Assembly: GCA_036874045.1 (NCBI GenBank)
Contig: CM072344.1
Span: forward strand, 6,296,501-6,360,500
Length of the DNA stretch: 64,000 nucleotides
Reading direction: 5' to 3'
Origin: Cymodocea nodosa
Lineage: Eukaryota; Streptophyta; Magnoliopsida; Alismatales; Cymodoceaceae
Below are positions 6,636 through 32,380 of the stretch, one piece after another. Positions within the stretch are counted from its first letter, which is position 1; every line of letters starts with the position of its first letter. The position numbers were made by a program, and so were the translations under genes. The notes beneath the pieces were generated by a model. The model did not search any database, was not told where the DNA came from, and saw only the letters and a program-made list of their open reading frames with translations.

Positions 6636-8865
6636 TGTTTGGTTACCCAGCACGACACTAGAAAACTTGTTTGGATCTCCAACAACGCACTAGAAAAACT
6701 TGGATTTGTTAACTTCTGTTTTTACTTAGATAATTTATCTTTATGCCTATTCCCTTTTTTTTTTAGAAGTAAACAAACAACCATTCACACAAATTAGATT
6801 TTAATTCCAATTTGTATTTTAACTGTAAGTGCACAGTGTCTACTGTATTAGTGTGCAAGTACAGGTCGATCCCATAGGGAATTGCTTAAGAATTGAGAAT
6901 TGTTCCGTTTTGAACAATCAAATTTATATATTCAATAAGCTCTCCGTTGAATTACAGTTAACTCAACGGACAAAGTTCGTTGAGTTATGGCTAACTCAAC
7001 GGACTAACCTCGTGGACTTAAGTTAACTCCACAAGCCTGTCTTTCCAATTTAATATTGCTATTTTCAGAGGAATTTGGCCAACCATTGGGCGATTCCATA
7101 GATTGTAAATAACATCAATTAAGCTCTTTAATGTTAGTAAACACTGAATTTATCATTAAGCATACTAACATTCAGATAATTCAAATAGTAACCATTAAAA
7201 TCTTTAAGTCTTTTGAATGAACCAATTTCAGTAAACTATAAAACTAAAACAAACATAAAATAATCACAACACTGACAAAGATAACATTAATTACGATACA
7301 ACACAAACAACACAACACTCAAATACAAAATACAAACACAGATAAATTGTTTTTGGTATTTTTGTTTTAATATGAACATGGAAATGGGCGAAAGGTGAAA
7401 TGTAAAGTAATCTCAATCGACAGTAAATACTTCCGTCACTACATGCGACACGATTACACCACTGAAAATTAAACCACTTACAATTCTGTCTCCTCTCCCT
7501 ATAGAATCGCGAGTCCAGAATTGCAAAATGATCTCCTCTTCAACATATAGGGGTCAACCCGAAACCAAGGCTAGAAGCTTTACGATCTTCTGAGATATGA
7601 GTCGGCACTTGGTGAAAATGGCTTCCCTTCCCGCGACGTGATCACTCCTCACAATGGTTGTCAGGCACTATGTTTGGCTTGAAATCGACCTGACATCAAG
7701 AAAGTATTCTTACAGACCTCCGATGGTTAGTGATTATGGTGGTGGTGATGATGGTTGGTGTGGTACTTCAGAGAATTGTCGACGCTGATCCTTCTCTACA
7801 CACGCTGGCCACACCCATCGATCACACACTTTACTTCTTTTTCTTCTTTTCTTTTATATTTCCTCAGTGGTAACTACTTCTGCTTGAATGGTCAGTTGGA
7901 TTTCCTTCATTCATATCAATGACGATGATTTCTTCTCTCTACGCAATACGTGCGATCGTGGTTTGTCCTTCCAACTGTCTTGTTTCTACAACCGCTACAG
8001 TGGCATATTAGAAAATAAATAGTCCGTGGAGTTACAAATAACTCAACGGACTTGCTTCGTTGATTTAACTATAAAACAGGTGCATAAATTTAACTATCAG
8101 ATGCTCAGGTGCATTTCGGATACTTACAAACTTAACTATCTGATGCCTAGATGCATTTCGGATAGTGACAAACTTAACTATCTGATGCCCAGATGCATTT
8201 CAGATAGTTACACATAACTCACCGATATATAACTTAAGTAAATCTACCAGATCTCGACACGTGTCAGCAGTAGTTTAATAATAAAAGAAACATTTCGGAG
8301 AGTTATAGGTCTAACCATCTGATGCTCAGATGCATTTCGGATAGTTAGAGATAACTCACCGAAAATCCACTTAAGTCACTTTCCCAAAACATGACATGTG
8401 TTCACAGCTATTTTATAAATAAAAGGAGATTTCGGAGAGTTACACATATAACTATCCGATGCCTAGCTGCAATTTCGAATAGTTATAGATAAATCACTGA
8501 AAGTTCACTTAAGTCATGCATTATGGTTTCGACACGTGTACTTCAGGAAATAATAAAATATTCTTTTAAAACATAATTATTTGGTAATTTAAACATAACT
8601 ATTCGATACATGTTCGTTATGTTAAACATAACTGTCTGAAATATTAGAAAATTCGGATACTTAAGGATTTCACAGCCTGCAACTTACCGAAAGTTCAGAA
8701 ATGTACTAAATTAACATTAATTCCCCAAAATTAAGTAGATTCTTTAATTAAAGCTTATAATAGTGTAATTATAACATAATTATTTAATTCTCATATTATA
8801 AGCTAAATATTATGCAATTAACCATCATTTAACCGTTAATATTATGCACTATTTCATTCTAAACA
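6636..8865 (-). repeat. 5' LTR of element M, about 2.23 kb
   Basis: The left edge is set by ...CCAAACA just before the primer site. The right edge is TGTTTAGAATG (complement 8855-8865), at which the integrase of element B begins in mid-codon. The termini form a short inverted repeat TGTTT/AAACA. The start of this LTR recurs in plus orientation at 61415 and 62018, and its U5 side recurs inverted at 1-609. The piece 7664-8020 recurs in the same orientation at 27390-27730. The U3 side (8020-8560) is packed with hairpin/G-box units. ORFs read through it are not convincing. Confidence 0.85.
8020..8560. repeat. Degenerate tandem hairpin/G-box units in the M LTR
   Basis: Units of about 137 bases (tcggagag at 8295 and again at 8432) each carry CGGAGAGTTA, then AACTATCCGATGC or a close variant, then TTCGGATAGTTA, TAACTCACCGAAA, CACTTAAGTCA and ACACGTGT or ACATGTGT. 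A shorter set of repeats around 8090-8215 (ctatc.gatgc.cag.tgcatttcgga, three times) precedes them. The halves are self-complementary, so each unit could fold into hairpins. Similar units occur in the copia-type solo LTR at 57090-57920. Confidence 0.75.
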
Positions 8866-8866
8866 G

Positions 8867-9352
8867 TCTCCATATAGAGTAGTGTTTGGAAAGGCATGTC
8901 ATTTACCAGTAGAGCTTGAGCATAAGGCAAGATGGGCTATTCAAAGGCTCAACTTAGATTTAAAGGCTGCTAGTAAGAAAAGAAATTTTCAATTGACTGA
9001 GTTTGAAGAAATACGGAGAGAGGCATATGAGAATTCACAGATAGCCAAAGAAAAGAGTCAAGTATTTCATGATAGCAAGCTCTTTCGTAAGAATTTTGAA
9101 GTAGGGCAGCAAATATTGTTGTATAATTCTAGACTACATCTATTTCTTGGTAAGTTAAGATCACGGTGGATAGGACCTTTTGTGGTAAAAAGTATGTTCC
9201 CTCATGGAGCAGTGGAGATTGAAAACCGTAAAAGTGGGGAAGTTTCTAAGGTCAATGGACACTGTTTAAATCCTTTCTTGCAGCAAAAATTATTTGGCCA
9301 TGGAGAGAATATTGTTTTAATCGATGTTGTCTATGCTAAATCTGATAATTAG
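8867..9352 (+). pseudogene. Integrase C-terminal fragment of element B
   Basis: About 161 codons, open to a natural stop. It starts mid-domain with [20 protein letters not shown], which matches the corresponding part of the D and X integrases, and continues through the GPY-type module ([15 protein letters not shown], then [10 protein letters not shown]). The catalytic DDE core is missing because element M interrupts it at 8865/8866. Its downstream neighbour, 149 bases on, is gag, not an env-like gene or the 3' LTR. Confidence 0.88.
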
Positions 9353-9501
9353 TGCTCTTTTGTTTTTCTTTTTATTAGTTTTAGATGTAATTATGTACTT
9401 ACCTATCTGACATGCAAGTGTTGGGATCAGAGACTATTCCACTGTAAGTGTCATTTGTACTTTTTTCTATCAAAATATTTCTTTTGTGATATTGTTAGTG
9501 T

Positions 9502-10890
9502 ATGCAATCTTCTAAGTGGATGAGAGATAGTGCATCTAGATTAATTAGACAAACCCCTTTAGAAGAAGAAGTTAGTGTGTTAGAAGAGCCTGCAAGGATG
9601 GGAGACCAAGGTAGAAACCAGCAATTACCTTCTCTTGAGGACATCTGCTATCCTCAAATGCATGGCCATCCCTCTTGTCTTGTATTACCTTAGGTAGATG
9701 GACATAAATTTCAATTGCATATGAATTATGTCAATCAGTTGCCTAGATTTCATGGACTAGATAAGGAAGATGCATATGCATTTCTAAATGACTTTAATGA
9801 TGTTTGCAACATGATTAATCTACCTGAAGTGCCTGTTGATGCAACAAAGTTGAGATTTATTCCTTTTGCCCTTCGAGATGATGCAAAGCTATGGTTGAAC
9901 ACCCTTCCTATTAATTCCATTTGTACTTGGACTGATTTTTGTGCTGTCTTTATTAAGAAATTTCATCCTTTGCAAAAGACCATTCAAGCTAAGAATGCTA
10001 TTCTAAACATCTGCCAACAAACCAATGAACCTTTTTGGAAATATTTTGAACGTTTCAATAGACTAGTGGTAAGATGTCCTAATCATGGTCTACCTAAATC
10101 AAGACAATGTTAAGTAATCTATGAAGGATTGGATTATCAGACCAAGTTGATGCTAGAATCTATGTCCTGGACGATTCATGAGATTAGATGAAGTCAATGC
10201 ATGGGATAGACTTGTGGACCTTGCTTAGAAAACAATGGAAATGGAAAGTTCATCAGATAGAACATTTGATAGAACTTTGGCAAGGGGAATACACACAGTA
10301 GACCCCATGGTAGGCATGGAAGCTAGGATGTCGTCCATGGTTAAAAAAGTAGAAGATTTGATTCTAAGTCAACAAAAAGGAAAAGATAAAGTGGTTGAAG
10401 TAAAGTGTATAGCATGTGGAATTCCTGGGCATATCATGGAAGAATGCCCTACAATGCAAGGACAACAGTTTGAGGAAGTCAATGCCATTGGTATGGGACA
10501 AAGGCCCTACATCACACTATACCTCGGGATGGAGAAACCATCCCAATTTTTCATGGCAACAACCGGAAGCACTTGGAAATCGTATTGAGCATCATGGACC
10601 CACTTAGCCAAATTTAAGTGATAGAATGTCTGCTTTGGAGAAAAGATTTACTGAAATGGAGAAAGGGATTCAATCCCTAATTCAAGTTAGCGGACAAGTA
10701 AATCCCATTTTAGCTAGCCATGACCAAATCATTAAGGGATTAGAAGCAAAGTTTGATAGGTTGTCTACTTCATCTAGAGGTAGAGCACGGGGAGAATTAC
10801 CAAGTAACACTGTACCAAATCCCCGCATGGCAGGTGTGCATTTGGCACAAGGAGAGACTTTAGGAACCAACCCTTCACCATCTACATGAG
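9502..10890 (+). pseudogene. Gag-type ORF of element B, located after integrase
   Basis: Gag forms the particle and packages element RNA. The retrotransposon gag core is plain: KFQLHMNYVNQLPRF, then KLRFIPFALRDDAKLWLNTL and FIKKFHPLQKTIQAKN. A complete zinc knuckle CIACGIPGHIMEEC (10408-10449) follows, then GWRNHPNFSW in another frame (hallmark of Athila gag), then a helical region resembling D residues at 20690-20830. Stops at 9691 and 10112 and two frameshifts (between 10115 and 10235, and near 10500-10600) break it. The ATG at 9502 follows a tract ending TTGTTAG that could act as a splice acceptor. Finding gag here, 3' of pol, is abnormal for a gypsy element. Confidence 0.85.
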
Positions 10891-12091: not shown

Positions 12092-12096
12092 GAATC
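12092..12096 (+). repeat. Left target-site duplication of element D (GAATC)
   Basis: GAATC immediately precedes the 5' LTR and recurs immediately after the 3' LTR at 24824-24828. A 5-bp duplication is standard for LTR retrotransposon integration. Confidence 0.92.
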
Positions 12097-14191
12097 TATA
12101 GAGTCATAATTTATGCATATTTTATATAGTTAAGTGATGCATTTTATGTGCGTAAAGCCATATACTCATAAGTGTTTAATGAAGATTTAAGTTATAATGC
12201 ATTTTGGGCAAATAATGTAGTTATGGGCTTAAATGAAGAAAGTAATGCATAAATGAGACTCTATTTGTTATTTAGCATTTTATTAAAACACATTTACATC
12301 TTGGTGGCAACACAATTGCATTTTATTAAGTAGATTAAATTTACTTTAGCACTTAGGATTAATTATTTAAATAAGTGCATGGGTATTTTTGGAATTCAAT
12401 GAAAAATGTGATTTTTGGCCCTTTTGAAGTATCCATGTTTAGGAATATATCTTATCTTATTTCTTGAGTGTTTTAATGTATTTGTTTGAGTTTTATAGGT
12501 TGAAGAATAAGAAAAATAAAGCAAATCAATATAGGAGGAATTTTGGCCCTTAGATTGAAGATCAAAGGTGGAGATCAAGTTCCACCACTTGGAGCCTCTA
12601 TAAAAGGAGAGGCAAGGCCAACAAATCCCTCCTCTTGGACGAGCTTACACCCATTCCAGCCCTTAAAAGTCATCAGCCCCTCTTCCCCCCTCAAGAACTC
12701 GTGGAAGGTGGTGTTCTCCCCCCTCTCATGGAGCTCCAAGGTAGAAGACAAGGTTCGGCCAACCTCTTCTCTTCTCCTCTTGGTGGTTGCTAGTAGGAGG
12801 ACAGCTAGGGCATCTTTTCCAGACCTTGTGGGTGCTGTTTGGAGCACATCTGAAGCCGTGCAACTGTCTCCCCTCTTCCGTGGATCAGTCCTAGTAGAAG
12901 AAAGGCAAGGGTTGTGGACTTTAGGTGGATGACTACTTGTTTCTTGGCGTTTGGTGGTGTTTGAAGACCTCCTGCTTCCAGAAGAGAACTCGTGTGGTGA
13001 CAGCCACGAAATTCTTGGCTAGGAGGACGGCTAGGAGCACATCTCATGTACCATTCTTCTCCAAAACAAGTTTGCACTTCAAGGTAAAAAGGGTTGTATT
13101 GGTTTAGCTCTTTAGGTTTTCATTTTCTTGTTTAAAGTTGAGTTATTTGTAATTTCAGTAGGGTAATTGTAGTTTTAGGTTTAGTTGTAATGTTACATTG
13201 TAGTTTAATCATAGAACTTTCATTTCAGTAGTTTATTATGTTTATTTTGAATGAATGGAAATGAATTTGGTTTGAATCTTGTGCATATGTGAATATTTGT
13301 ATGCTAACAAAGCTAATTTGTGGATGTTTATCGTCGGTTTAGAATCTTGTAAATTTGATGTTTTTGTTTAGGTCATAACTTACTGATATAGTGATGTTTT
13401 GCTTTAGTTTTTGATTCTATTTTGTAGAGCTTCGAGTGTACTTTATTCCTGTATAGTATTTAGAATTTTTCCAATCTATTTGTATAGGTTTTCCAATTTA
13501 TTTTGTTGATGTCGCATCTGGCGCATCCTGGAGTTTTACCCTCAATTTTTGCTTCAGTGCCGAATTCGATATCTTTTTATCTGCAGCACAAAATCGACCT
13601 CTGTAAATTTTCTCTGTTAGATGAATGAGTTAAGTTTCGAAGCACACTATTTTGCAGACTTTCGTGAAGATTTGAAAATCTTATTCCATTTTTAGTAACT
13701 GTGCACAATTCAGAGATGTTAGTTGCCAGTCTGCACGTTTGAAGAAAAAGCATTGCCGACGCTTGACCATTTCAGATCTTTTAACAAAATCAGTGGGATT
13801 GTAAAGTTAATCCAATGAGTACTCAGTATGATATTTTTTATGTATTTTACCATTGAGATACTGAGAAGAGAATATGTGTGAACTTGACTGAATTTCGAGA
13901 TTTTGTGCTGTAGTGAGTTAGTGTTTTATGAATGGAAATGAGGAATTTATACTCTATTGAGTGAATTTTTGATAAGTTTTGAATCACTTGTAATTATTAT
14001 TGTTTTTGCACCTTAGAAATATTTTGTAAAAGCCAAATCCTTGTGGATTCGACCCATACTCACCGGAGTATATTACAATTGCACCGTGCGCTTGCAGTTA
14101 TTTTAAAATGAGTTTTGAGTTTAATGTTTTATCATTTTGGTCCCTTTGTGAGTTTTAAGATCTTATTTTGGGGACAACAAAAACCTCAACA
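12097..14191 (+). repeat. 5' LTR of element D
   Basis: Matches 22732-24823 from the first base to ...CTCAACA. The 3' copy begins TGTAGAG; this one begins TATAGAG, so the canonical second base G has mutated to A. The U5 end carries the usual 'gattcgacc...gcgcttgcagtta' block. A GC-richer stretch (about 12560-13080) downstream of the TATA box holds a 129-codon ORF (12543-12932) that is also open in the 3' LTR; its sequence resembles no protein I recognise and it is better viewed as transcribed leader. Confidence 0.95.
12599..12605 (+). promoter_or_regulatory. TATA box of the D 5' LTR
   Basis: TATAAAA in the context cctctataaaaggagagg, near base 500 of the LTR, followed by a GC-richer leader. 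It is conserved in the 3' LTR and is the likely promoter for the element RNA, which would start at about 12630. Confidence 0.75.
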
Positions 14192-14197
14192 AGTTTT

Positions 14198-14216
14198 TGG
14201 CACCGTTGCTAGAGAT
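14198..14216 (+). promoter_or_regulatory. Primer-binding site of element D (tRNA-Asp-like, decayed)
   Basis: TGGCACCGTTGCTAGAGAT lies 6 bases after the LTR end. It resembles the TGGCGCCGTTGCCGGGGAT type with about four changes, most of them G-to-A or C-to-T. Confidence 0.85.
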
Positions 14217-14972
14217 TTGGTTATGTTTTTACCGAATTTCTTTGGTGTTTTTAATGGATTTTTGAAAAGTAATGATTGTTTGTTGTGTATATTCTTTTGT
14301 GTTATGTGTATTTACTTGTTTTAATGTGTAGTTCAATTTGTTTTGTTTGTAATGTATATTCTTGATATACTATATTACTACTTCATATTCAGATAGATTT
14401 TGTCAATAATAAGTGATAATTTAAAATCAGTAGTCAATAGGACATACCTCTTATAGGAAAGTTTAAGTGTATAGTATTTGTAATTATTTTGAAATGCAAA
14501 CTTGTAACCGGAAAATTTAATTTTGCTATTTGCAAGACTTGCTACGAATTTTTTCTATATTTTTCCTGTAAAGTTCAGTTTTAGATGTTTCTGTAGAGTA
14601 TTTGTATGCTTAATTCGGAGTTGTATGCAAAAAGTTATGATTTTTCGAAGGCAGACTCACATGCAGTTTCAATTTGAAAATAGATTCATTAGTTAATCTA
14701 GAATGAATTGGGAAATTGTTGTATAGGTAATCTTGTATTTATATTGCATTATTCTTTAATTTTTCTTCATTTAATTATTAATTATTCTTCCATTGTGTAG
14801 TCAGTCTTTTATTAAAATGGATTAAAGTTACTCACTTGGTTGCTACTTTATGCAGATCTAACTAATAGTGAATCACTTGAAGAGTGAGAAAAATTAAAAA
14901 CAAAGGCTAGTAAAGATTAACTTAGTCGTTGAATCTTTATTCTCTTTGTATCTGAATTAGAGCGTATTTGCC
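14217..14972 (+). other. Untranslated leader of element D
   Basis: AT-rich, no ORF with recognisable content. In ordinary Athila elements this is where gag would begin; here nothing resembling a capsid domain is seen in any frame. Confidence 0.7.
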
Positions 14973-16772
14973 ATGGATGATTGGTCAAGCCAGGTTGATG
15001 AATATTATGGCTATGATGAAAATGACTTTATGCCATCATGCTTTTCTTGTTTTGCAAGTGATCATGTTACTAGTGAATGCCCAAATGATATGCTTCATGA
15101 ACAAAATTCTAGCATGCCATGTAATGTATTAGAATATGAAAGTAATCATCTTCCATGCATGAAATATGATTCATATATTCACCATGATTTACCTAATCAT
15201 GCATATGCATTTACTAGTAAATCTGAAAATTCTTATCATGCATGTAGTATAGATCTAAGCGAAGATATAGATAAATTTAATGCAATTATGGACAGCATTG
15301 CTAAAGAGAAATCTGTTAGTAGTGATAGTAAGAATGTTTTTCATGCTGATCCAATTGATGTGGATGCAACATGTGATGACCTTGGAAAACAAATGGATGC
15401 ATTTGTTACTTTAAGGTCAGGTAAGGAAGTGAGTAGGACTAGTGGTGAAATTCCTCTATTCGTGAGTCCTCTAGAGCCTTGTTGCAATCCATCTAGAGTA
15501 GAAATTTTTGAAGATCCTATAGTTATCTCTAGAAGTGATAAGGGTAAGCAAGTAGTCGATGTCCCAATTGACTCATCTACTAGTGCTCCTTACCCTACTA
15601 GACTTAGAGTCGAATCAGGAGGAGACAAATTAGATAAGATTAGAGAAACCTTTGAGCAAGTGAGAGTGAATATACCTTTATTGGAATTAATTCAACAAGT
15701 TCCCTCACATGCTAAGTTCTTAAAAGAGCTATGTACTAAGAAGAGAGATAGGAAGATACCTAAGAGTGTAAACTTAGTGGAAGCAAGTAGTTCTTATTTT
15801 TATAATTATATTCCTAGAAAGTATAATGATCTTGGGACTCCTACTATTTCATGTATTATAGGAAAAACTACTTTTGATGGAGCCTTATTAGACCTAGGAG
15901 TAGTGAATGTTATGCCTTCTAGCATTTATGAAGAACTAGGGTTAAGATGCTTGCAACCAACAAGAATAGTAATTCGCCTAGCTGATAGATCTTTTAGGAC
16001 ACCTCTTGGAATAGTGGAAGACCTCCTAATTAAAGTCCAGGATTTTATATACCCTATAGACTTCATAGTTATAGAAAACCGTCACGTTATAGACCTTAAG
16101 AATAGTGCCTCATTAATTTTAGGTCGTCCCTTTTTAGCAACAATTGATGCTTATATTGGTTGCAGAGAAGGTTTTATGCAGATCACATGTGGAGATCAGA
16201 AGTCGCAACTAAATGTTTTTAATGTGGAAAGTGGCATGCGAGATCAATTAGAGGAAGAATTTGAAGTTAACCTAGTTGATGTGTTTGAAGAAGTTAAAGA
16301 TTCTTTTGAAGAGGACGAAGCCAGCCTTAAGGTTGACATTGATGAAGACTACTTTTATGTATCAAGTGATTTCGAAGATGACACTTTCATTGAGATCAAC
16401 AAAGCTAACCAAGTGGTAGTGGCTGAATCAAATAAAGTTGAGCTGGCAGAGCAAGCTCAACTAGAATTGAAACCACTACCTGTAGATCTCAAGTACGTAT
16501 TTTTGGGAGAATGTGAGAAGTGGCCTATTATTATTTCTGCCCATCTGACTAGGGATCAAGAAGCTCAATTAGTTGAAGTGCTTAAGGAAAATAGAAGAGC
16601 TATTGGATGGACTATGGAGGATATTAAAGGAATAAGCCCTTCTATTTGTACTCATAGAATTCATTTGGATCCTAGTTATGCTCCATCTAGGCAACCTCAG
16701 AGAAGACTAAATGTAAATATTAAGGAGGTAGTAAGAAAAGAAATTTTAAAATGGTTAGATCATGATATCATC
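14973..16772 (+). pseudogene. First ORF of element D: zinc knuckle, TLRSG linker and protease
   Basis: The ATG at 14973 sits in a good context (gccATGga). Residues 23-36 form a perfect CX2CX4HX4C knuckle (CFSCFASDHVTSEC). TLRSGKEV lies near residue 146 and AKFLKELCTKKR near 249, followed by the protease active site LLDLGVVNVMP near 304 and LILGRPFLAT near 382. The active-site loop is one residue shorter than in M (DLGAGINVMP), probably inactivating. The RT N-terminus follows, but one base is missing between 16772 and 16773 (atcatc|accc where related copies have atctaccc), throwing the frame off. No capsid domain precedes the knuckle; gag is at 19613 instead. Confidence 0.85.
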
Positions 16773-18060
16773 ACCCTATTTCTGATAGTCCTTGGGTCAG
16801 CCCTATTCAGGTTGTTCCCAAGAAATCTGGTATTACAGTGGTTAGAAATGCTAATGATGAATTGGTTCCCACCAGAATGCAGACCAGGTGGAGAGTATGC
16901 ATTGATTATAGGAAATTGAACAATGCCACCTATAAGGATCATTTTCCATTGCCCTTTATGGATCAAATGTTGGAAAAATTAGCAGGGCAAGAATTTTATT
17001 GCTTTCTAGATGGTTATTTTGGTTACAACCAAATTCATGTTGCTTTAGAGGACTAAGAAAAGACAACATTTACTTGTCCTTTCAGAACTTTTGCATTCCG
17101 GCGCATGCTTTTTGGATTGTGCAATGCGCCTGCAACATTTCAACGCTGTATGATGGGTATTTTCTCAGATATGATTGAGAGATTCTTGAAAGTATTCATG
17201 GATGATTTCTCAATATTGGGATCTTCCTTTGAATCATGCTTGGAAAATTTGAGAATGGTTTTGGAGAGATGTATAGAGAAAGATTTAGTGCTAAACTAGG
17301 AAAAGTGCCACTTTATGGTAAAACGAGGAATTGTTTTAGGGCACATAATTTCTGGGAAAGGATTAGAGGTGGATAAGGAAAAAGTAGATTTAATAGCAAA
17401 CTTGCCTCCACCTAAGAATGCTAAAGATGTAAGAGCATTTCTTGGCCATGCTAGATTTTACCGAAGATTTATTAAGGATTTCAACAAGATTGCTCAACCA
17501 TTAAGTAGATTGTTAGCAAAGGATACCAAGTTTGATTTTTCTATAGATTGTGAAACAGCATTTGTTAAGTTGAAAGAGGCTCTATCCTCAGCTCCTGTTG
17601 TTCATGCACCTGATTGGTCCCATCCTTTTGAGCTGATGTGTGATGCCTCTGATTATGCTATAGGCGCAATTCTTGGGCAAAAGATTGATAAGCTTCCCAG
17701 AGTTATCTATTATGTAAGTAGAACATTGAATGATGCCTAGAAAAATTATACGGTAACAGAAAAGGAATTTTTAGCAATAGTGTTTGCCTTGGAGAAATTT
17801 AGACCCTATTTGGTTGGCTCACACACTATTGTCTATACTAATCATAGTGCCTTGAAGTATTTGTTGGCAAAACAAGATGCAAAACCCCGACTTATGAGAT
17901 GGATCTTATTGTTACAAGAATTTGATTTGGTAATTAAGGACAAAAGGGGTTGTGAAAATGTAGTTGTCGACCATCTATCAAGGCTATCTATTGGAAATTC
18001 TTCTGAGATACCCATTAGTGATGTTTTTCGAGATGAGCAGGTATTATCTATTAGTGCTGA
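16773..18060 (+). pseudogene. Reverse transcriptase and RNase H of element D
   Basis: Motifs in order: VCIDYRKLNNATYKDHFPLP, FLDGYFGYNQ, FGLCNAPATFQR, catalytic VFMDDF (17193-17210), LGHARFYRRFI, then RNase H with [40 protein letters not shown] and [11 protein letters not shown]. After the 1-base deletion at 16772 the frame is constant through the integrase. The in-frame stops at 17056 (TAA for an expected Gln), 17297 (TAG for Trp) and 17738 (TAG for Gln) are all explained by C-to-T or G-to-A changes. The catalytic residues survive. Confidence 0.93.
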
Positions 18061-19360
18061 ACCTTGGTATGCTGATATAACAAATTATTTGGTTACAAAG
18101 AGAATACCACCCCATTGGTCTTCTGTTGATAGGAAGAGATTTTTATTGAAATGTAAAGATTATTATTGGGATGACCCGTACGTTTTTAAAGCATGTTCGG
18201 ATTTAATTGTGAGAAAGTGCATCCCAGATTCTGAAGTGCTTAGTGTTCTCTCTTTCTATCATGATCAATCTGGGGGAGGGCATTTTGGTCCTGCAAAGAC
18301 AGCTGCCAAGGTATTGTAGTGTGGTTTCTTTTGGCCAACTCTGCATAAGGATGCTTTTAAGTATTGTAAGCATTGCACAGCATGTCAAAAAGCCAGAAAA
18401 ATGGGGAGAAGAGATATGATGCCTTTGAACCCCGTGATTGCGATTGATGCTTTTGATTTATGGGGTATCGATTTTATGGGTCTATTTCCCAACTTAAGAG
18501 GCTATTTATATATTCTAGTAGCAGTGGATTACGTGGCCAAATGAATAGAGGCAATCCCCACAAGATGTAACAGCAACAAGGAAGTCTGTGCCTTTGTAAA
18601 ATCAAATATATTTTCAAGATTTGGAGTGCCTAAAGCTATAGTCAGTGATAATGGCACACACTTTTGCAATAGAAGTTTTGAGAACCTATTGAGAAAGAAT
18701 GGAGTGACTCATAAACTTGCCACACCTTATCATCCTCAAACTAATGGGCAAGTTGAAAATGCAAATAGGTTAATTAAGTAGATTCTAGAGAAACTGGTAA
18801 GTGCTATAAGAAAAGATTGGGTTGATAAAGTGGATGATGTTCTGTGGGCATACCGTACTGCATTTAAGACTAGTTTGGGTATGTCTTCTTATAGAGCTGT
18901 ATATGGAAAGGCTTGCCATTTACCAGTAGAGTTGGAACATAGGGCCATGTGGGTCATTAAGAAGTTAAATTTAGATTTTAAGGTAGTTGGAGATAAAAGG
19001 AAATTTGAATTGAATGAGCTAGAAGAGTTAAGGAATGAAGCATATGAAAATGCTAAAATTTCTAAGGAAAGAGCAAAAATTTTTCATGATAAAAGAATTT
19101 TAAGAAAAGAGTTTCAACAGGGCCAGCAAGTTTTGTTATATTACTCTAGACTCCACCTTTTTCCAAGAAAGTTAAAATCTAGGTGGAATGGCCCATTTGT
19201 TGTAAAGAGAGTCTATCCTTATGGAGCAGTGGATATTGAACATCTTAAAGATGGGCGAGTGATGAAGGTTAATGGCCAACGTCTCAAATTGTTTTTAAAT
19301 AAGGCAGATTTACGGGAAGCAAGTAGTGTAGATTTATATGAAGTAGAATATAGTAATTAA
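18061..19360 (+). pseudogene. Integrase of element D
   Basis: The zinc-binding region has [10 protein letters not shown] then CKHCTACQK. The core has LWGIDFMG, VSDNGTHFCNR and QVENANR, supplying the D, D and E positions. [13 protein letters not shown] and a GPY-type module ([18 protein letters not shown]) follow, to a natural stop at 19358. Stops at 18317 (Q), 18542 (W to TGA) and 18779 (Q) interrupt it without frameshift. It ends about 250 bases before the gag ATG. Confidence 0.92.
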
Positions 19361-19612
19361 TCATTCTTTTCTTCTTTGTAAGTATTTATATTTTGTAATG
19401 TTTATTTACTCTCTCTCCCTTTTCACCAGTTATTCTTTTATGCATGTTTGTTTATAGTTGTCACAATGTTATTGTTTATAATTATTCTTCTTGTAATTTA
19501 TCTTGTAACTATTTGGTATTTCAGGGTGGTACGACTGATAGCAACTACGAGAACCTGGTAAAATCTAAACTGAGCTATTTTACTTGCTGTTCTTACTTGT
19601 AGTAGTTTTGCA

Positions 19613-20929
19613 TTGTGCATGCATCGAGGAGTGTGGAGAAGAACTGAAGCAAATAGGTTAGAGCATTGTGAACCTCTTCTAGAACCTATTAACCTTCCAC
19701 CATTACATCAAATGGAAGACCAAGGAAGAGTGCTAGCTGATGTGTGGTATCCTCCACAGTTTGATCAACCCTCTTGTTTTGTGCTTCCAAATGTGGAAGG
19801 ACAAAAGTTTGAGTTACACTCAAACTATATCCATCAATTGCCAAAATTTTTAGGGTTGGAAAGAGAAGATGCCTACCTATTTCTACATGAATTTAATGAG
19901 ATGTGTAGGCTAATTCATTTGCCTGATGTACTTGTAGATGCAATAAAGCTAAGATTTATTCCCTTTGCACTTAAGGAGGATGCTAAGAGGTGGATGTATA
20001 GTTTACCTCCTAACTCCATCTATTCTTGGGAAGAATTCTACAAGGTCTTTCTGAAGAAGTATCATCCTCTATATCGCACCATCTAGCTTAAGAACGCTAT
20101 TTTAAGTATTCAACAGAAGTCGGATGAGTCTTTCTAGCAATATATGGAGCACTTTATGAATTTGTTAGCTAGATGCCCAAACCATGGAGTTGACAGGGCA
20201 AGGCAAACCCAAGCTATCTATGAAGGTTTGAACATGCAATCAAGAACCATGATAGAGTCCATGACTCCTGGTGGTTTTTGTCAATTAAGAGAGAATGCTG
20301 CTTGGGAATTTCTACAAGAGCTTGCTGACTGCACAATGCAATGGGAGACATCCTCAGATAAGACTTTTGATAGGTCTACACCTGCTTGAGGACTTCATGC
20401 GGTCGACAACATTACTAGCATGGAAGCAAGATTACAAGCTGCTTTGAAAAGAATTGAAGATTTACAACCATATGAGGATGTACAAGCTATGGGGTCGAGA
20501 ATGAGAAACAATCAATATTACAACCCTGGATGGAGAAACCATCCTAACTTTAGTTGGAGGAACCAAGATTATATGAGAGAAAATGCGTCGGAGCAACATC
20601 ATTTCGGAGCTAGTTTGAGCTGGCAGCCCCAACCGCAAGTTCCTACCCTTCCTGCACCAAACATGCAGTCAAACATCAATGCTGATATGGAACGCAGAAT
20701 GGCTAAAATGGAGGAAGGAATTCAAACTTTATTGACTAAGATGGGACCAATGCTAGCGGAGCACTCTCAAGCAATCAAAGGAATTGAAGCTCAACTGGAA
20801 CATTTATTTGTTGGAAACCGGGAGCGTGGATCTTTGCCGAGTCAACCGGCACCGAACCCACGAAATGCTAGTGGTAGTAACCAGTTTGGAGGACACACGA
20901 ACGCAAGCTCGAGTGCCCCTCCATCTTGA
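19613..20929 (+). pseudogene. Gag (capsid) ORF of element D, located after integrase
   Basis: One frame of 438 codons with three stops (20084, 20135, 20387), each explicable as C-to-T or G-to-A. It has the retrotransposon gag core (KFELHSNYIHQLPKF, KLRFIPFALKEDAKRWMYSL, VFLKKYHPLYRTI), then RCPNHG...QAIYEGL, then YNPGWRNHPNFSW, a hallmark of Athila gag, and a helical tail (MEEGIQTLLTKMGPML). The CCHC knuckle present in B between the helical linker and the PGWRNHPNFSW motif is missing here; the only knuckle in D is in the 5' ORF. A pyrimidine-rich tract ending TTACTTGTAG sits just upstream, so expression from a spliced RNA is conceivable. All of this lies 3' of pol, opposite to the usual order. 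Confidence 0.9.
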
Positions 20930-22713
20930 TTGTATCTATATCTATATTTTATTTCTGTACATAATTATCTTCTATATGCTTTTATTTGTTAAATTCTTGT
21001 TTGATATGTGTGTTAGTTTTGTAGTGTTTGTTTTTTCTACTACAAGCCAGGTACGCATTCCTTATCCTTATCCTTTCCAATGCACTTATATTTTTTATGT
21101 TACAATCTTGTATATTTGCATGTTTATCATTTTGTGTATGCTAGAGCAAATGTCTTAAGTAATTTTGAAAGTGCATGTAGACTTCATGTTAGGCATGGGG
21201 GGGGGGCGACATCTTGACTTGTAAAGTGTGTTTATGTTTATCTTTATCGTCTGCATGCTTTCAACTTAGCTTAGTTATCACTTTACATTGAGGACAATGC
21301 ATGAACTAGGCATGGGGGGAGGCATTTGACGATAATTTGTGATAGTCCTTTTATTTTGTTATTATTTTCACGTTATTAGTATGTGTTTTGTTGTTTTTAT
21401 GTGGTGTTTAAAATTTTTTTTGTAATTTTCTGTTTTTGATTGGAACTCAAGTAGCTGAGGTTGAAAACTCAAGAGTTGCTATTAGGATTAATGGGATTAT
21501 CCCCCATTTACTTTTGAGTGGTATCTCCAAAGCCATATGTGTGGACCTATGATGAGTTCTTTAAAGGAAGATGAGTTTCATGCTGATGTGTTTTCAGTTG
21601 AGTCTTCCTAGCTACTTGGATTAATGCCTTGTTCTTTTGCACCCATTTTTGAGTGATCCTAAGCCGAGTGCCACCATAATAAAGGGTTATTCTATGACCT
21701 TAAGGTGAGATAATTTGGATCAACTCGAACTTTCATGAGAATTTGAAGGTTGTGTTTAGGACAGCTTTCAAGGTTATCACACTTGGTATGTTAAGAATGG
21801 TGTTGAAGTAAGTAGTTGGAGAAATAAGGTGTATACCATTATGAAATTAGTTAGTTCAATAAAAAAAGAAAGAAAGTGTGATTTGAAAAGAAAAGAGAAA
21901 AGAAAAGAGAGAAAAATATGAAAAAAAAAGAAGAAGAAGGAAAGAAAGCAATAAAGTAAATAGGTGGGTTTGTAGTCAAAAGGGGAGTGAATAAAGTTTT
22001 CCTTTTGTTATCAATTTTTCCTTTCTTGAGTGTTGGGGGTTTGGCATATCAAGTGTGGTACCTTGTCGACTTAGACTAGACATTTTCCAACAATTCTCAT
22101 AGGAAGGAAGGAATCACTACCTACCATTTTGTGGTTATTGCATATTTTCATTATCGTGTGCTTTATATTCTTTTATGTGTAGTGAGGGTGAGAATCTTCT
22201 TGATGCAAGGCAGATGGTCCTTATAGACAGGTGACTCCTTGAGCATATTAGTGTTGACTTGTTGGAATTTAAAGGACTTGTGAGTTATTTTTCTTTTTGA
22301 GCCACCACTAATACCCAAAGACCCTAATAGCAGTGATTGAGCCTAGCAACCTTGCACTTGAGCTTTAATCTCTCTCTTGTTTTATGTTTGTGTATTCTCT
22401 TTTTAGTGTTTTAATGTGTTATGTATTGATTTTATATTGTTTTATTATGATTTTATTTTGTTTTGTTTTCATTGGTTTTGATTTAGACTTTGTGGGTATG
22501 TCTTCTGCAAACCCTTTGGAGACAACACTCTACCGCTAGGGTGACCTAGAGGTTAAACGGCTTGTTGCATAAGCTAAATGGAATTGCGATTCCTGTGAAA
22601 GTGAGTTAGGATTTCTATTTTTAGTAGTTAGTTTTGTTTTTAAATAAGTATGCCACCTTGTCAATTGTGTTTATCTTTTAGACTTCTAGCTAGTTATGCT
22701 AGGGACTAGCATA
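20930..22713 (+). other. 3' untranslated region of element D
   Basis: No convincing coding sequence. It has two G-run blocks: 21180-21210 (ttaggcatggggggggg) and 21285-21325 (ttgaggacaatgc...aggcatgggggg). A purine tract lies at 21860-21960. The block 22480-22620 (ccctttggagacaacactct..., gggtgacctagaggtt) is shared with B at 24985-25110. The ORF starting at 20784 merely overlaps gag out of frame. Confidence 0.75.
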
Positions 22714-22731
22714 ATTTAGGCTTGGGGTTTT
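22714..22731 (+). promoter_or_regulatory. Polypurine-type tract before the D 3' LTR
   Basis: The stretch ending aggcttggggtttt abuts the LTR. The preceding 'gggactagca' is shared with the equivalent sites at about 25209 and 61385. It is the likely plus-strand primer region, although T-rich next to the LTR, so the exact RNase H cleavage point is uncertain. Confidence 0.6.
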
Positions 22732-24823
22732 TGTAGAGTCATAATTTATGCATATTTTATATAGTTAAGTGATGCATTTTATGTGCTTAAAGCCATATAC
22801 TCATAAGTGTTTAATGAAGATTTAAGTTATAATGCATTTTGGGCAAATAATGTAGTTATGGGCTTAAATGAAGAAAGTAATGCATAAATGACTCTATTTG
22901 TTATTTAGCATTTCATTAAAACACATTTACATCTTAGTGGCAACACAATTGCATTTTATTAAGTAGATTAAATTTACTTTAGCACTTAGGATTAATTATT
23001 TAAATAAGTACATGGGTATTTTTGGAATTCAATGGAAAATGTGATTTTTGGCCCTTTTGAAGTATCCATGTTTAGGAATATATCTTATCTTATTTCTTGA
23101 GTGTTTTAATGTATTTGTTTGAGTTTTATAGGTTGAAGAATAAGAAAAATAAAGCAAATCAAGATAGGAGGAATTTTGGCCCTTGGATTGAAGATCAAAG
23201 GTGGAGATCAAGTTCCACCACTTGGAGCCTCTATAAAAGGAGAGGCAAGGCCAACAAATCCCTCCTCTTGGACGAGCTTACACCCATTCCAGCCCTTGAA
23301 AGTCTTCAGCCCCTCTCCCCCCCTCAAGAACTCGTGGAAGGTGGTGTTCTCCCCCCTCTCGTGGAGCTCCAAGGTAGAAGACAAGGTTCGGCCAACCTCT
23401 TCTCTTCTCCTCTTGGTGGTTGCTAGTAGGAGGACAGCTAGGGCATCTTTTCCAGACCTTGTGGGTGCTGTTTGGAGCACATCTAAAGCCATGCAACTGT
23501 CTCCCCTCTTCCATGGATTAGTCCTAGTAGAAGAAAGGCAAGGGTTGTGGACTTTAGGTGGATGACTACTTGTTTCTTGGTGTTTGGTGGTGTTTGAAGA
23601 CCTCTCGCTTCCGGAAGAGAACTTGTGTGGTGACAGCCACGAAATTCTTGGCTAGGAGGATGGCTAGGAGCACATCTCATGCACCATTCTTCTCCAAAAC
23701 AAGTTTGCACTTCAAGGTAAAAAGGGTTGTATTGGTTTAGCTCTTTAGGTTTTCATTTTCTTGTTTAAAGTTGAGTTATTTGTAATTTCAGTTGGGTAAT
23801 TGTAGTTTTAGGTTTAGTTGTAATGTTACATTGTAGTTTAATCATAGAAATTTCATTTCAGTAGTTTATTATGTTTATTTTGAATGAATGGAAATGAATT
23901 TGGTTTGAATCTTGTGCATATGTGAATATTTGTATGCTAACAAAGCTAATTTGTGGATGTTTATCGTCAGTTTAGAATCCTATAAATTTGATGATTTTGT
24001 TTAGGTCGTAACTTACTGATCCAGCGATGTTTTGCTTTAGTTTTTGATTCTATTTTGTATAGCTTCGATGTACTTTACTCCTGTATAGGTTTTAGAATTT
24101 TTCCAATCGATTTGTATAGGTTTTCCAATTTATTTTTTTGATGCCGCATCTGACGCATCCTGGCTGTTTTCCCTCAATTTTTGCTTCAGTGCCGAATTCG
24201 ATATCTTTTTATCTACAGCACAAAATTGACCTCTGTAAATTTTCTCTGTTAGATGAATGAGTTAAGTTTCAAAGTACACCATTTTGCAGACTTTCGTGAA
24301 GATTTGAAAATCTTATGCCATTTTTAGTAATTGTGCACAATTTAGGGATGTTAGTTGCTAGTCTGCACGTTTGTAGGAAAAGCATTGCTGATGCTTGACC
24401 ATTTCAGATCTTTTAACGAAATCAGTGGGGTTGTAAAGTTAATCCAATGAGTACTCAGTATGATATTTTTTATGTATTTTACCGTTGAGATACTGAGAGA
24501 AGGATATGTGTGAACTTGACTGAATTTCGAGATTCTATGCTGTAGTGAGTTAGTGTTTTATGAATGGAAATGAGGAATTTATACTCTATTGAGTGAATTT
24601 TTGATAAGTTTTGAATCACTTGTAATTATTATTGTTTTTGCACATTAGAAATATTTTGTAAAAGCCAAATTCTTGTGGATTCGACCTGTACTCGCCGGAG
24701 TATATTACAATTGCACCGTGCGCTTGCGGTTATTTTAAAATGAGTTTTGAGTTTAATGTTTTATCATTTTGGTCCCTTTGTAAGTTTTAAGATCTTATTT
24801 TGGGGACAACAAAAATCTCATCA
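22732..24823 (+). repeat. 3' LTR of element D
   Basis: Begins TGTAGAG and ends CTCATCA, next to the GAATC duplication. It is highly similar to 12097-14191; sampled differences are scattered substitutions and a 2-base indel. It keeps the same TATA box and the same 129-codon leader ORF (23176-23565). Confidence 0.95.
23232..23238 (+). promoter_or_regulatory. TATA box of the D 3' LTR
   Basis: TATAAAA in the same context as at 12599. From here transcription would read out through 24823 into element B's 3' remains. Confidence 0.65.
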
Positions 24824-24828
24824 GAATC
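24824..24828 (+). repeat. Right target-site duplication of element D (GAATC)
   Basis: Direct repeat of 12092-12096, placed exactly at the LTR end. Confidence 0.92.
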
Positions 24829-28124: not shown

Positions 28125-29748
28125 TTTTTAGGAGAACATGAAACCTTTCTAGTGATTATTGCAAATGACTTGTCTAGAGAACAAGAGCTAAGTTTGTTAG
28201 ATTTGCTGAGGGAATTTAAAGAAGTCATTGGTTGGACTATAGCAAATATCAAGGGTATTAGTCCTACTATCTGTCAACATAGAATTTATTTGGAGGATAA
28301 TGTTGTGCCCTCTCGTGAATTTTGAAGGAGATTAAACCCCAACATACGAGAGGTAGTTAAAAAGGAAATAATTAAACTTTTGGATAATGATATCATCTAC
28401 CCAATCTCTGATAGTACTTGGGTCAGTCCTATTCAGGTTGTCCCTAAGAAATCTAAAGTGATGGTAGAAGCAAATGATAAGAATGAGCTCATCCTTGTGA
28501 GGAAGCAAACTGGTTGGTGTGTGTATATTGATTATCAGAAGCTCAATGCCGCCACTAGGAAGGATCATTTTCCATTGCCCTTTATTGATCAAATGTTAGA
28601 AAGATTAGTAGGGCAAGAATATTATTGCTTTCTTGATGCATACTTGGGTTATAATCAGATTGTTGTGGCACCTGAAGACCAAGAGAAGACAACCTTCACA
28701 TGCCCTTTTGGAACGTTTGCATATAGGCGAATGCCTTTTGGACTTTGTAATGCGCCAACAACTTTCCAAAGGTGCATGATGGGCATTTTTAATGAGATGA
28801 CTGAAAGTTGTCTTGAGATTTTCATGGATGATTTTTCCATTTTTGGATCTTCATATGATGTATGTTTGAAGAATTTAAGATCAATACTAGAAAGATGCAA
28901 ATTGAAGAAGCTGGTCTTAAATTGGGAAAAGTGCCATTTCATGGTCCAAAGTGGAATTGTGTTGGGACACATGGTCTCTAAGAAAAGATTGGAAGTGGAT
29001 AAGGCAAAAGTGGAATTAATTGCCAATCTACCTAAGCCTAAAACAGTTAAAGATATAAGATCCTTTCTAGGCCATGCTGGATTTTATAGGAGGTTCATTA
29101 AGGATTTTAGCAAGATAGCTAGACCCTTAACGAACTTGTTAAAAGATGTCCCATTTTTGTTCAACCAAGAGTGCAAGGAAGCATTTTATAAGATTAAGAA
29201 TCAACTTGTATCATCCCCTATTATCCAATCTCTTAATTAGGCATATCCTTTTGAGGTTATGTGTGATGCTTCTGATTTTGCAGTAGGGGCAGTATTGGGA
29301 CAAAAGATTGATAAGCTTCCATATGTAATTTGTTATGCTAGCAAAACCCTCAATGATGCTCAACTCAATTATGCAATCACTGAGAAAGAACTTTTGGCTA
29401 TTGTGTTTGCTTTGCAGAAATTTAGGTCATATCTGATTGGACCCAAAGTAATTGTTTATATAGATCATGCAACTTTAAAGTATTTGTTGGCAAAGAAGGA
29501 TGCCAAGTCACATTTGATGATATGGATTTTATTGCTACATGAATTTGACATTGAAATCAAAGACAAGAAAGGATGTGAAAATGTTGTAGCTGATCACTTA
29601 TCTAGACTGCAGTTAGCACCCTCAAATTTAGAAGTTGGAAAGTCATTTCCTGATGAGCAAGTTTTAATGGTTAATGTCGTCCCATGGTTTGCAGTTATTG
29701 TTAATTATTTAGTCATGGGATCGATGCCACATGATTGGACAAGGCAGG
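28125..29748 (+). pseudogene. Reverse transcriptase and RNase H of element X
   Basis: It begins in the protease-RT linker (FLGEHETFLVIIAN). RT motifs: [43 protein letters not shown], catalytic IFMDDF (28818-28835), [11 protein letters not shown]. RNase [54 protein letters not shown] single frame is kept throughout, with stops at 28322 and 29238 only. It ends at ...DWTRQ where the LTR starts at 29749. The protease is missing; the upstream neighbour is an inverted LTR scrap. Confidence 0.93.
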
Positions 29749-32372
29749 TGTAAGGAGTAAAATTGTGCATTTTTATGTGATATTATTTGTGCTTCTTATG
29801 GCTTAAATGTTAAATAATGCATGATTATAATTGAAATATCATCACATAGGCATTTACATGAGTATGCATGATTATGGGATTTAATGACTTAAATTTGCAC
29901 AACTTAGCCCTTTTGTTGATTATTGACTTAATGATCATGGGAATGAATAGTGATTATTTACTTAGATGTCTTAGATGTTTTCTTCTTGTTATATTTTAAT
30001 TTGTTTGCGTAAGTTTTAAAGGTTATCTAAAGGAAATAAGATGGATGAATCTCAACCGTTGGATCTACCAAGGAAGAGATCAACTACCAAGTCTATTTAA
30101 AGGGAAGGACAACCCAAAACTAGGTCTTGTCTTCTCCTCTCCAAGCAAAAATGTGGCTCCTTCTTCTCTTTGGATTACCGGCAGCCAAAGCTCCTTGGAA
30201 GCAAGTCACTTCCTCTCTAGTGTTGTTGATTTCAGTGGTGCGTGGAGAGAGCAAGTTGGACCCAAGGGAGGCATGTTCGTGGAAGCTCCAAGAAAGGACG
30301 TGGGTGCATAGAAGGTGATTTTGTTGGGTGCAACTCCCTTCTTCTTCGGTGTACAACTTTCTTGCGTGGAGGACAGTAGGAACCTCTTGTGAAGAGGTCT
30401 CTTCATCCGGTTTGGAGGTGATATGTGTGGAGAAAGCAAGGAAGGAGCCAACTAGGGCATGGTTGGTGGACGCCCATGAGAAGGAAGCTTGTTGCCTTCA
30501 TCCTTTGGTAAAATCTTGAAACCCCTTAGTATTTCAAGAGGAAAACATGGTGTGACAAGCCATGTTGGAGTGTTGAGGACATGAGGGAGGCCAACTTCAA
30601 GAGCTTACTTCAAAGTGTTGGAGATTTAAAGGTATAACTTGGAGTGGGTTGACCAAAAACTAACATTATGTTTGCATATGTTGTGTCTTATCATTGTGTT
30701 TGATGTTGTTTGTGTATTGCATATGTCTTTGCATGTTTAGGTTTATTTTTAGTAGTATAATCTTCATTTTTATGTTGTAAAAATCTTAGTTCATTTAATG
30801 AAACTTGCCTTTGAAAATGAATGATTTTCGTGTAGATATGTGAATACATGTAGTCAAGGTGTTCATTTACTATAAAGACAGAACTTTCCTTGTGTTATTT
30901 TCTTTGTAAATTGAGTTTTTCTCAATGTTTTTCATCAATTCTTAATACTTTTTTGTAGAGAAATAAAAGATGATTCTTTTTGTATACTTTGTTTAATTTT
31001 TCGAGCATGTTTGGTTTGATTTTTTCATTTTATACGAAGAGTATATTCTCAGTCTGAAATCATATTTTCGATTAGTAGTTTTGCGGAAATGTCTGATGCA
31101 ATTTCTCCCTCTGTGCAGTATATTTTTAAGATCTGTAAATTGGGTTTATTAGATTGATAAGTATACTTTCGTTCAGCAGTGATTTCATAGATTTTAATGA
31201 AGAATTGATAAAGTTCTCGAGTTTTTACTATGAGTGCACGTTTTGCATTATTTCAAGATCGTTTTGCGCATCTTACTAGGGCTTAATGTTATTTTCAATT
31301 GAAGATGATTTAGACTGTAAAATCACTATTTCCTTTTATATAACTTGAAACCCTTTCCATTTCATATTTTTACATGATTTCTCAATTCCTATGTTGGGAG
31401 AAATCGTTATTATAAGTAGAGATATTATCTGTGATTTCAGAGAAGAAGTTAGGAAGGGAGCGGATTTTTGTAGTTCCGGATTCTAGCCAAACAGAATCCT
31501 GCCCTACATTACTCCTTTCATAAAAGACACTTTTGGTAAAGTTTTTTAGTGTTTCTTGATTCTATTTTGTAATAAATTTCTTGTAGATTACATTCACGTA
31601 AATGTTGTATTTTTTAGAATGTATTTCGTTGGTTTTTGATTTTTTCTATCAGAGGTCGCAGTAGTTTTGCATTCCTATTCGGATGCCAGTTTTAGTGCTC
31701 GACGCCTGAGTGTTGCCTGCGCTAAAAACTTTATGGAAAGCTATTCTATCAATCTTCCATATTAGTAGTATGAGTCATCATTCAAAGCCCTTTGATTTCA
31801 CAGGATTTCATGGAGTTTTGACCAAGTTATGATTTTTTCACCAAAGGTGCGTTTTTGGAAAGTTTACATAACGGTTCTACTCCCTGTCAATAAATCCAAC
31901 ACTTCTAGATTTTTTTAATGATTTAGTCTATGAAATTACTGCCATTTCGAAGATAACTCGAGGATCTTTCCAACCAATATTTTCTCTGGATTTTTCAATG
32001 TCCAGGTTGGATGTAAGGAGAGTTAGAAGTTGGGCTTAATTTCTGTAATTTCAGAGATGAAACTCATTAATTTTCTTGAGTTTCCTAAGGTTTAACCTTA
32101 GGAGCTTATTGGATTTATGACAATACTTGAACTCTTTATCGTATTTATGTAATTATTACCTATTAATATGTAATTAAAGTTTTTATCATGGTTTTAGTGA
32201 TGTGAATATTTTGCTAAGAATTTATTTCCTTGAATTTGTTTAAGACAAGCTTCCTGTGGATCGACCCGCTCTTGCATATGCTTAATACAATAGGTACCAT
32301 GCGCTTGCAGTTTATAAATGTAAAATTTGGGATTTTCGTGTTTTAATTCTAAATACATCAAATTTCCTTACA
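29749..32372 (+). repeat. LTR of a further gypsy family, 2.6 kb, embedded in element X
   Basis: It has perfect 8-base terminal inverted repeats (TGTAAGGA at the start, TCCTTACA at the end) and a U5 block cctgtggatcgacccgc...atgcgcttgcagttt at 32250-32312. A primer-binding site follows directly, so this is a 5' LTR, not a solo LTR. It differs from the D, B and X LTRs in sequence but shares their plan: TATA near base 345, then a GC-richer leader. No partner 3' LTR is found. The small ORFs within it (30045-30519) have no recognised domain. Confidence 0.88.
30094..30101 (+). promoter_or_regulatory. TATA-like box of the LTR at 29749
   Basis: TATTTAAA in gtctatttaaagggaag, followed by a CT-rich leader, as in the D and X LTRs. 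Confidence 0.55.
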
Positions 32373-32380
32373 AGTTTTTG

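What the first reader, a model, noticed from the sequence alone, without database searches (positions are those of the whole stretch)
19613..20929. Gag lies downstream of integrase in a complete Athila-like element
In element D the retrotransposon gag core (RFIPFALKEDAKRW) and the Athila hallmark PGWRNHPNFSW lie after integrase, while the usual gag position after the primer site has a 0.75-kb non-coding leader and then a knuckle/protease ORF. The element is bounded by matched LTRs and an exact 5-bp duplication, so this is not two fragments lying side by side by chance. Known Ty3/gypsy elements have gag before pol; Athila elements carry an env-like ORF in this position.
Basis: partly seen in the sequence, partly recalled or inferred. 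Interest (0 to 1): 0.92.

Follow-up and report, generated by a model that had tools for sequence, protein, structure and literature searches.

The report
Plant retrotransposons with capsid gene last
A group of jumping genes in what is likely a plant genome carries its capsid gene after its enzyme genes instead of before them, and two genomic copies that lack exactly the enzyme block, cut at intron-type borders, suggest that the capsid is likely made from a spliced RNA.

Summary
Element D (12097-24823, LTRs 96.3% alike, GAATC duplications) has integrase, then gag. The window lies in a 374.6-Mb genome. For 38 further D-family gag copies I read the 0.9 kb upstream: 35 of 38 have integrase directly before gag; 2 of 38 have LTR-leader joined straight to gag at one exact GT-AG junction that removes all of pol (window 14910-19524, 4615 nt); 1 is unclassified. 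One of the two is a complete LTR-leader-gag-LTR insertion with ATTAA duplications. So a spliced leader-gag RNA very likely existed and was reverse-transcribed. Three more families have gag after integrase: C (pol-gag), E (pol-gag-env-like, one copy) and A (pol-env-like-gag). RT pieces of A, D and E form one clade. The capsid part of gag evolved under purifying selection. Proposed: Gag from spliced RNA; Pol, with its own N-terminal zinc knuckle(s), from unspliced RNA. RNA, other species and canonical-order Athila in this genome are untested. Seven literature searches aimed at this order listed no report of it.

The parts
12092..12096 (.). target-site duplication GAATC, left copy
   Evidence: read
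12097..14191 (+). 5' LTR of element D
   Evidence: 96.3% to 22732-24823
14192..14909 (+). leader exon; PBS-like stretch from 14198; no gag homology
   Evidence: joined to gag in L044 and L067; leader test
14910..19524 (+). inferred 4615-nt intron holding all of pol (donor G|GTAAAG, acceptor TTTCAG|G; the window copy has A for G at 14909)
   Evidence: absent from L044 and L067 at this exact junction; donor G|GTAAAG in L002, L020, L022
14973..16919 (+). pol ORF start: CCHC knuckle at 15039, TLRSGK, protease region (label recalled), RT start
   Evidence: Pfam finds no family here
16920..19360 (+). RT, RNase H, integrase (broken by stops)
19525..19618 (+). 5' untranslated part of the gag exon; the first ATG of exon 2 is at 19619
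19619..20929 (+). gag: capsid part, PGWRNHPNFSW, tail LPSQPAPNPR; broken by in-frame stops; no CCHC knuckle
20930..22731 (+). 3' untranslated region of D; 21479-22321 is 67% alike to the region downstream of the env-like ORF of element E
22732..24823 (+). 3' LTR of element D
24824..24828 (.). target-site duplication GAATC, right copy
   Evidence: read
8840..9349 (+). element C: integrase C-terminal part (element truncated on its 5' side)
   Evidence: 56% to the D integrase C-terminus
9499..10886 (+). element C: gag with CCHC knuckle (10406) and SGWRNHPNFSW, after integrase; interrupted downstream by D
   Evidence: (PF03732 9.7e-18)
28125..36791 (+). element E copy (interrupted): pol, then env-like ORF 34148-34432; gag missing here but present between integrase and env-like ORF in L009
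1891..6570 (-). element A copy: knuckle ORF (its knuckle decayed here), protease, RT, RNase H, integrase; no gag found in this copy or in the 5 kb beyond the window edge
   Evidence: (L030); family order

Best explanation
Element D belongs to a group of Athila-type LTR retrotransposons in which gag lies downstream of integrase, and Gag is likely translated from a spliced RNA that joins the 5' leader to gag, while Pol would be translated from the unspliced RNA. Shown: the order in D, in 35 of 38 other family copies and in families C, E and A; two genomic copies with pol removed at one exact GT-AG junction 63 nt upstream of the pol start codon; purifying selection on the capsid part of gag; and CCHC knuckles at the start of pol (D, A, E). 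Inferred: that these copies are cDNA of a regular spliced mRNA, that splicing sets the Gag/Pol ratio, that gag-last arose once in the ancestor of the four families, and that Pol, no longer fused to Gag, reaches the particle through its own zinc knuckle(s) binding the genomic RNA.
For: Order and boundaries. Upstream of gag in 38 copies: 35 integrase, 2 leader, 1 neither. Junction: leader ...AAAGGCTG joined to GGTGGTACG in L044 (L067 has one base changed, GAGTGG); unspliced copies L002, L020, L022 read AAAGGCTG|GTAAAG at the donor. The L044 insertion has 3' UTR and LTR and ATTAA on both sides. In three leader quartets the grouping of L044 with L067 is never the best (9 v 5, 6 v 2, 5 v 1 sites), which fits two separate events. 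Family E copy on C11: LTRs 93.9%, CACAT duplications, order 2 knuckles-TLRSG-protease region-RT-RNase H-integrase-gag-env-like. Family A: gag after the env-like ORF on C2 (L017/L031), C13 (L011/L032) and C11 (L016/L033, env-like and gag only); LTR copies on both sides of the C13 element. Gag and integrase trees both give (A,E)|(C,D). RT pieces of D, E and window A plus P0004 form a clade, support 0.939, among 95 sequences. Capsid-piece pN/pS: D-L022 0.25 (bootstrap 0.09-0.55), between families 0.38-0.51.
Against: No RNA was examined. Two spliced-type copies among 38 could come from rare aberrant splicing. L044 and L067 share 1 to 5 leader sites against the best grouping in each quartet, so one spliced founder that later recombined is not excluded. 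The acceptor AG is at its exact place in 21 of 34 readable copies; 11 of the other 13 read A for the G there. The leader exon holds 15 upstream ATGs, so translation of either RNA needs re-initiation or shunting. The three D gags read here (window, L022, L034) are broken by stops or cut short. The middle gag piece is under looser constraint: pN/pS D-E 0.69 (0.50-0.98), L022-E 0.58, C-E 0.53, D-L022 0.63 with an uninformative range (0.09-9.0); the integrase C-terminus has 0.33-0.38 between families. The E order with gag rests on one copy; the window's E copy lacks gag. Gag lies before the env-like ORF in E and after it in A, so at least one further move is needed. Pfam does not name the env-like ORFs (none above chance; PF20167 at 4.7e-4, far below its cut-off, in L017).
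Confidence: 0.8

Rival explanations
1. D is one rearranged or chimeric copy, or two nested fragments read as one element.
For: The window is full of nested insertions, and a reference survey removed elements with unexpected order as likely mispredicted (Neumann 2019, passages).
Against: 35 of 38 other copies have the same order; duplications bound D, E(C11) and L044; four families share gag after integrase.
Confidence: 0.02
2. The downstream gag is an additional capsid-like ORF or a trans-acting helper; true Gag comes from canonical gag-pol Athila elements elsewhere in the genome.
For: Co-operation between Athila families is proposed (Marco and Marin 2008, passages). I could not search the whole genome for canonical-order elements, because the tool answered only twice.
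Against: No other capsid gene was found in the elements read; the gag has capsid, PGWRNHPNFSW-type motif and tail, and its capsid part is under purifying selection; its tree agrees with that of integrase.
Confidence: 0.12
3. Gag is made without splicing, from an internal promoter or by re-initiation after Pol, and the two pol-less copies are rare splicing accidents.
For: Only 2 of 38 copies are of the spliced type; there is no RNA evidence; integrase and gag are separated by a T-rich spacer that might also hold a promoter.
Against: Donor and acceptor fit GT-AG with a pyrimidine-rich tract, recur in other copies and lie exactly between leader and pol start and just before the first ATG of gag.
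Confidence: 0.12
4. LTR-leader-gag elements are ancestral and pol was later inserted between leader and gag.
For: L044 and L067 have the gag-only form, and gag-only Athila elements are described in Arabidopsis (passages).
Against: The junction is an exact GT-AG boundary; the two gag-only copies group with different pol-bearing copies; families C, E and A also carry pol before gag.
Confidence: 0.05

Closest known systems
Athila / Diaspora / Calypso lineage of Ty3/gypsy
   Same: RT neighbours, TLRSGK-protease-RT-RNase H-integrase order, gag capsid motif, long LTRs, PBS a few bases inside the LTR; env-like ORF in families E and A
   Different: Diaspora has gag-pol as one 1892-codon ORF (abstract and passages); here gag is downstream of integrase in four families
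Ty1/copia EVD (EVADE) short GAG
   Same: Gag surplus from a spliced subgenomic RNA while the unspliced RNA serves Pol (abstract and passages)
   Different: In EVD gag is first and full-length RNA makes a Gag-Pol polyprotein; here splicing would skip pol to reach a downstream gag, and Pol would not be fused to Gag
Bagy-2 and other env-class plant elements
   Same: splicing reported for an element with an ORF downstream of pol (passages)
   Different: the downstream ORF there is env-like, here it is gag
Foamy viruses (recalled, not tested)
   Same: Gag and Pol made from separate RNAs, Pol recruited without a Gag-Pol fusion
   Different: there Pol comes from the spliced RNA and gag is first; here the reverse
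Gmr1-type fungal Ty3 elements (recalled, not tested)
   Same: a changed domain order in a Ty3/gypsy lineage
   Different: integrase moved within pol, gag stayed first

Membership tests
Athila lineage (Ty3/gypsy) | RT groups with Athila RTs | tested here: inconclusive
   120 of 7983 hits listed, 59-74% identity, the named ones mostly plants; A, D, E inside a tree of 95 sequences. The Athila name of these hits is recalled; no listed hit bears it and no reference Athila was included
Athila lineage (Ty3/gypsy) | protease-RT-RNase H-integrase order of pol | tested here: met
   (protease label itself weak)
Athila lineage (Ty3/gypsy) | gag first: GAG-PROT-RT-RH-INT (Neumann 2019) | tested here: not met
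   gag after integrase in D, C, E, A
Athila lineage (Ty3/gypsy) | env-like ORF after integrase (in part of the lineage) | tested here: not met
   none in D. ORFs in E and A that I call env-like from position and recall have no Pfam match above cut-off
Athila lineage (Ty3/gypsy) | PBS complementary to tRNA-Asp | tested here: inconclusive
   TGGCACCGTTGC at 14198 resembles the recalled PBS; no tRNA comparison was run
Retrotransposon Gag | capsid domain PF03732 | tested here: met
   D 1.8e-7, C 9.7e-18; A 6e-6 (L016) and 8e-4 (L032, below cut-off), E second piece 6.8e-6, E first piece none
Retrotransposon Gag | CA fold of Ty3/Arc type | tested here: inconclusive
Retrotransposon Gag | CCHC knuckle in Gag | tested here: not met
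   none in the D gag (window, L022) or the A gag (L031, L032, L033); one each in C and E gag; in D and A the knuckle is at the start of pol
Spliced subgenomic Gag strategy | spliced RNA detected | not testable with these tools
   only genomic copies of the spliced form

The most novel reading that the evidence does not exclude
A whole clade of plant Ty3/gypsy retroelements has turned the Gag/Pol logic round: pol is nested in the intron of the gag transcript, Gag is the spliced product, Pol is made unfused and packages itself through zinc knuckles moved to its own N-terminus, and gag has changed place again relative to env (pol-gag, pol-gag-env, pol-env-gag).
Probability: 0.5. Interest if true: 0.93.

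Novelty: new variant of a known kind. Interest (0 to 1): 0.87.

Why it matters
Gag before pol is treated as a fixed rule of LTR retroelements, and a reference survey removed every element with unexpected order as likely mispredicted (Neumann 2019, passages). A multi-copy group with gag last and genomic traces of splicing shows that the rule can be broken. It asks how Pol is packaged without a Gag-Pol fusion, and pipelines that demand gag first may hide more such elements.

Tried and rejected
Single-copy rearrangement: rejected by 35 of 38 copies. Gag vestige in the leader: none. Gag relatives in viral contigs: none. Protein search with residues 1-200 of the pol ORF: 139 candidates, none significant. 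Gag piece search: 8 proteins of 21 candidates, all unnamed, contigs not readable. My first reading of E as an ordinary pol-env Athila and of A as gag-first was wrong: L009 has gag between integrase and the env-like ORF, and A has gag after the env-like ORF. A possible second small intron (GTAA...TAG) just before the gag ATG is not removed in L044 or L067. The gag fold search was weak; unrelated helical proteins score almost as high. In one search the A_L017 row was misread (8 X) and fell outside the A group; I leave that row out of the clade statement. L067 entered the leader comparison with its first 534 bases only.

Dropped rows: of the 41 rows, the upstream set leaves out the window copy, the L022 copy already held and a 52-base fragment, which leaves 38.

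Full report
What is there. Element D spans 12097-24823. Its LTRs (12097-14191 and 22732-24823) are 96.3% identical (K2P 0.037), and GAATC flanks both sides. From left to right it has a 781-base leader; an ORF from 14973 that opens with a CCHC knuckle (15039) and continues through TLRSGK, the protease region and the start of RT; RT (PF00078, 2.1e-10), RNase H (PF17919, 3.8e-18) and integrase (rve, 3.5e-13) to 19360; a 252-base T-rich spacer; and gag (capsid 19619-20389, tail 20420-20929 with PGWRNHPNFSW; PF03732 1.8e-7). Pfam names no family in the 648-aa ORF; the protease label is recalled and supported only by the likeness to element A, whose match to Asp_protease_2 is below the cut-off. Gag and pol are broken by in-frame stops. 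No gag trace lies in the leader, and no match to my env-like pieces lies in the 3' region.

A second example in the window. Element C (8840-10886, truncated at its 5' side and interrupted by D) also has integrase followed by gag (PF03732 9.7e-18). C and D differ by about 30% in DNA where they align, so this is not a recent duplicate.

Copies in the genome. The window is part of a 374.6-Mb assembly of 28 contigs, unnamed; that it is a plant is inferred from the named relatives of its RT. Four of the 20 held D-family internal sequence. L020, L022 and D3 (L002 plus L009) go from leader to knuckle ORF to protease without gag between; L021 is a deletion form. L022 has the full order up to gag, and D3 has gag after integrase. 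A gag-led search returned 41 rows, 40 candidates scored out of 726, so this is a sample of the best matches. I fetched 0.9 kb upstream of 38 of them: 35 of 38 have the integrase C-terminus and spacer, 2 of 38 have the leader (with the LTR end in L044), and 1 (L073) has neither.

The splice traces. In L044 and L067 the leader runs to window position 14908/14909 and then continues at 19525. The unspliced copies L002, L020 and L022 read AAAGGCTG|GTAAAG at the donor, the window having A for the last exon base; the acceptor reads TATTTCAG|GGTGG. The sequence AAAGGCTGGGTGG in L044 is what GT-AG splicing of these copies gives; L067 differs from it by one base. The intron is 4615 nt, starts 63 nt upstream of the pol start codon and ends upstream of the first ATG of the gag exon. 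L044 is followed by 3' UTR and the start of an LTR (L075) and bounded by ATTAA on both sides (L076, L077), so it is a complete integrated gag-only element. L067 has a piece of another repeat inside the end of gag and a downstream LTR (L079, L080). The two differ by 8.5% over 531 leader bases, and in three quartets they are never best grouped together (9 v 5, 6 v 2, 5 v 1 sites), which favours two events. The acceptor AG is at the exact place in 21 of 34 readable copies; 11 of the other 13 show A in place of G there.

Other families. Family E, on C11 (L029 and L009, read as separate pieces), has LTRs 93.9% alike, CACAT on both sides and the order two knuckles-TLRSG-protease region-RT-RNase H-integrase-gag-env-like ORF. 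This is one copy; the window's own E copy lacks gag. Family A has a knuckle ORF soon after the LTR, pol, an env-like ORF and then gag, read across adjoining stretches on C2 (L017, L031) and C13 (L011, L032); on C11 (L016, L033) only env-like and gag were in the stretch. The C13 copy has LTR copies on both sides, 84% alike. The window's own A copy shows no gag, nor do the 5 kb to the left of the window (L030). 'Env-like' is my label from position and recall; Pfam gives at best PF20167 at 4.7e-4, below its cut-off. After gag, L032 has an F-box ORF (PF00646, 4e-10), and L031 a like one by eye.

Descent and selection. Gag and integrase trees both separate (A,E) from (C,D). RT pieces of D, E and window A, with one unnamed protein P0004, form a clade with support 0.939 among 95 sequences; the misread row A_L017 is left out. 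Capsid-piece pN/pS is 0.25 for D against L022 (0.09-0.55) and 0.38-0.51 between families D/L022, C and E; the middle gag piece is looser (0.53-0.69 in the pairs with 75 or more codons between families; D-L022 0.63, range 0.09-9.0); the integrase C-terminus has 0.23 for D-L022 and 0.33-0.38 between families. The capsid part thus kept coding while downstream of pol, if the order is ancestral to these families.

Mechanism. Because pol sits between the donor and the acceptor, the unspliced RNA offers Pol and the spliced RNA offers Gag. In Ty1/copia EVD a spliced RNA also supplies surplus Gag, but gag is first and the full RNA makes a Gag-Pol polyprotein (abstract and passages). Here Pol would be made unfused. 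Knuckles lie at the start of pol in D, A and E (intact in 3 of the 5 A copies searched), whereas D and A gag have none; I infer that they bind the genomic RNA and bring Pol into the particle. This last step is untested.

Literature. Seven searches aimed at this order gave no report of it in the listings that I saw (40 of 97 papers, 12 of 18); an eighth was for spliced Gag. Subscription journals are mostly missing and preprints are not held. Neumann 2019 (passages) removed elements with unexpected order. I saw passages only, with the abstract where the tool showed it, of Diaspora, Vicient and Casacuberta, Retand, Marco and Marin, a 2025 review and the EVD paper.

Limits. Source species unknown; no RNA; other plants could not be searched for order; canonical-order Athila elements in this genome were not excluded, because the genome search answered only twice.

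Noticed in passing
L032:908-1648 (minus strand); L031: The family A element on C13 carries an F-box ORF (PF00646) between gag and the 3' LTR, and the C2 copy a like ORF after gag: probably a captured host gene.
   Followed up: partly
window 33865-33909: The window's E copy lacks gag; the aligned ends overlap by 45 bases with the two sides of gag in L009, as after a deletion.
   Followed up: partly
L021 (C6:9525414-9535413): A D-family derivative with the LTR, 59 bases of leader and then 3' UTR: nearly all of the inside is gone, unlike the spliced-type copies.
   Followed up: no
window 14192-14908: The leader exon holds 15 ATGs, as in pararetroviruses whose leaders are bypassed by shunting (recalled).
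   Followed up: no
window 1-596 and 6679-7276: Inverted copies, 90.7% alike, at both ends of the A element region; not explained.
   Followed up: no
window 8411-8865, 61415-61841, 62018-62431: A repeated stretch adjoins the sharp 5' truncation of element C at 8866 and recurs near the right end of the window.
   Followed up: no
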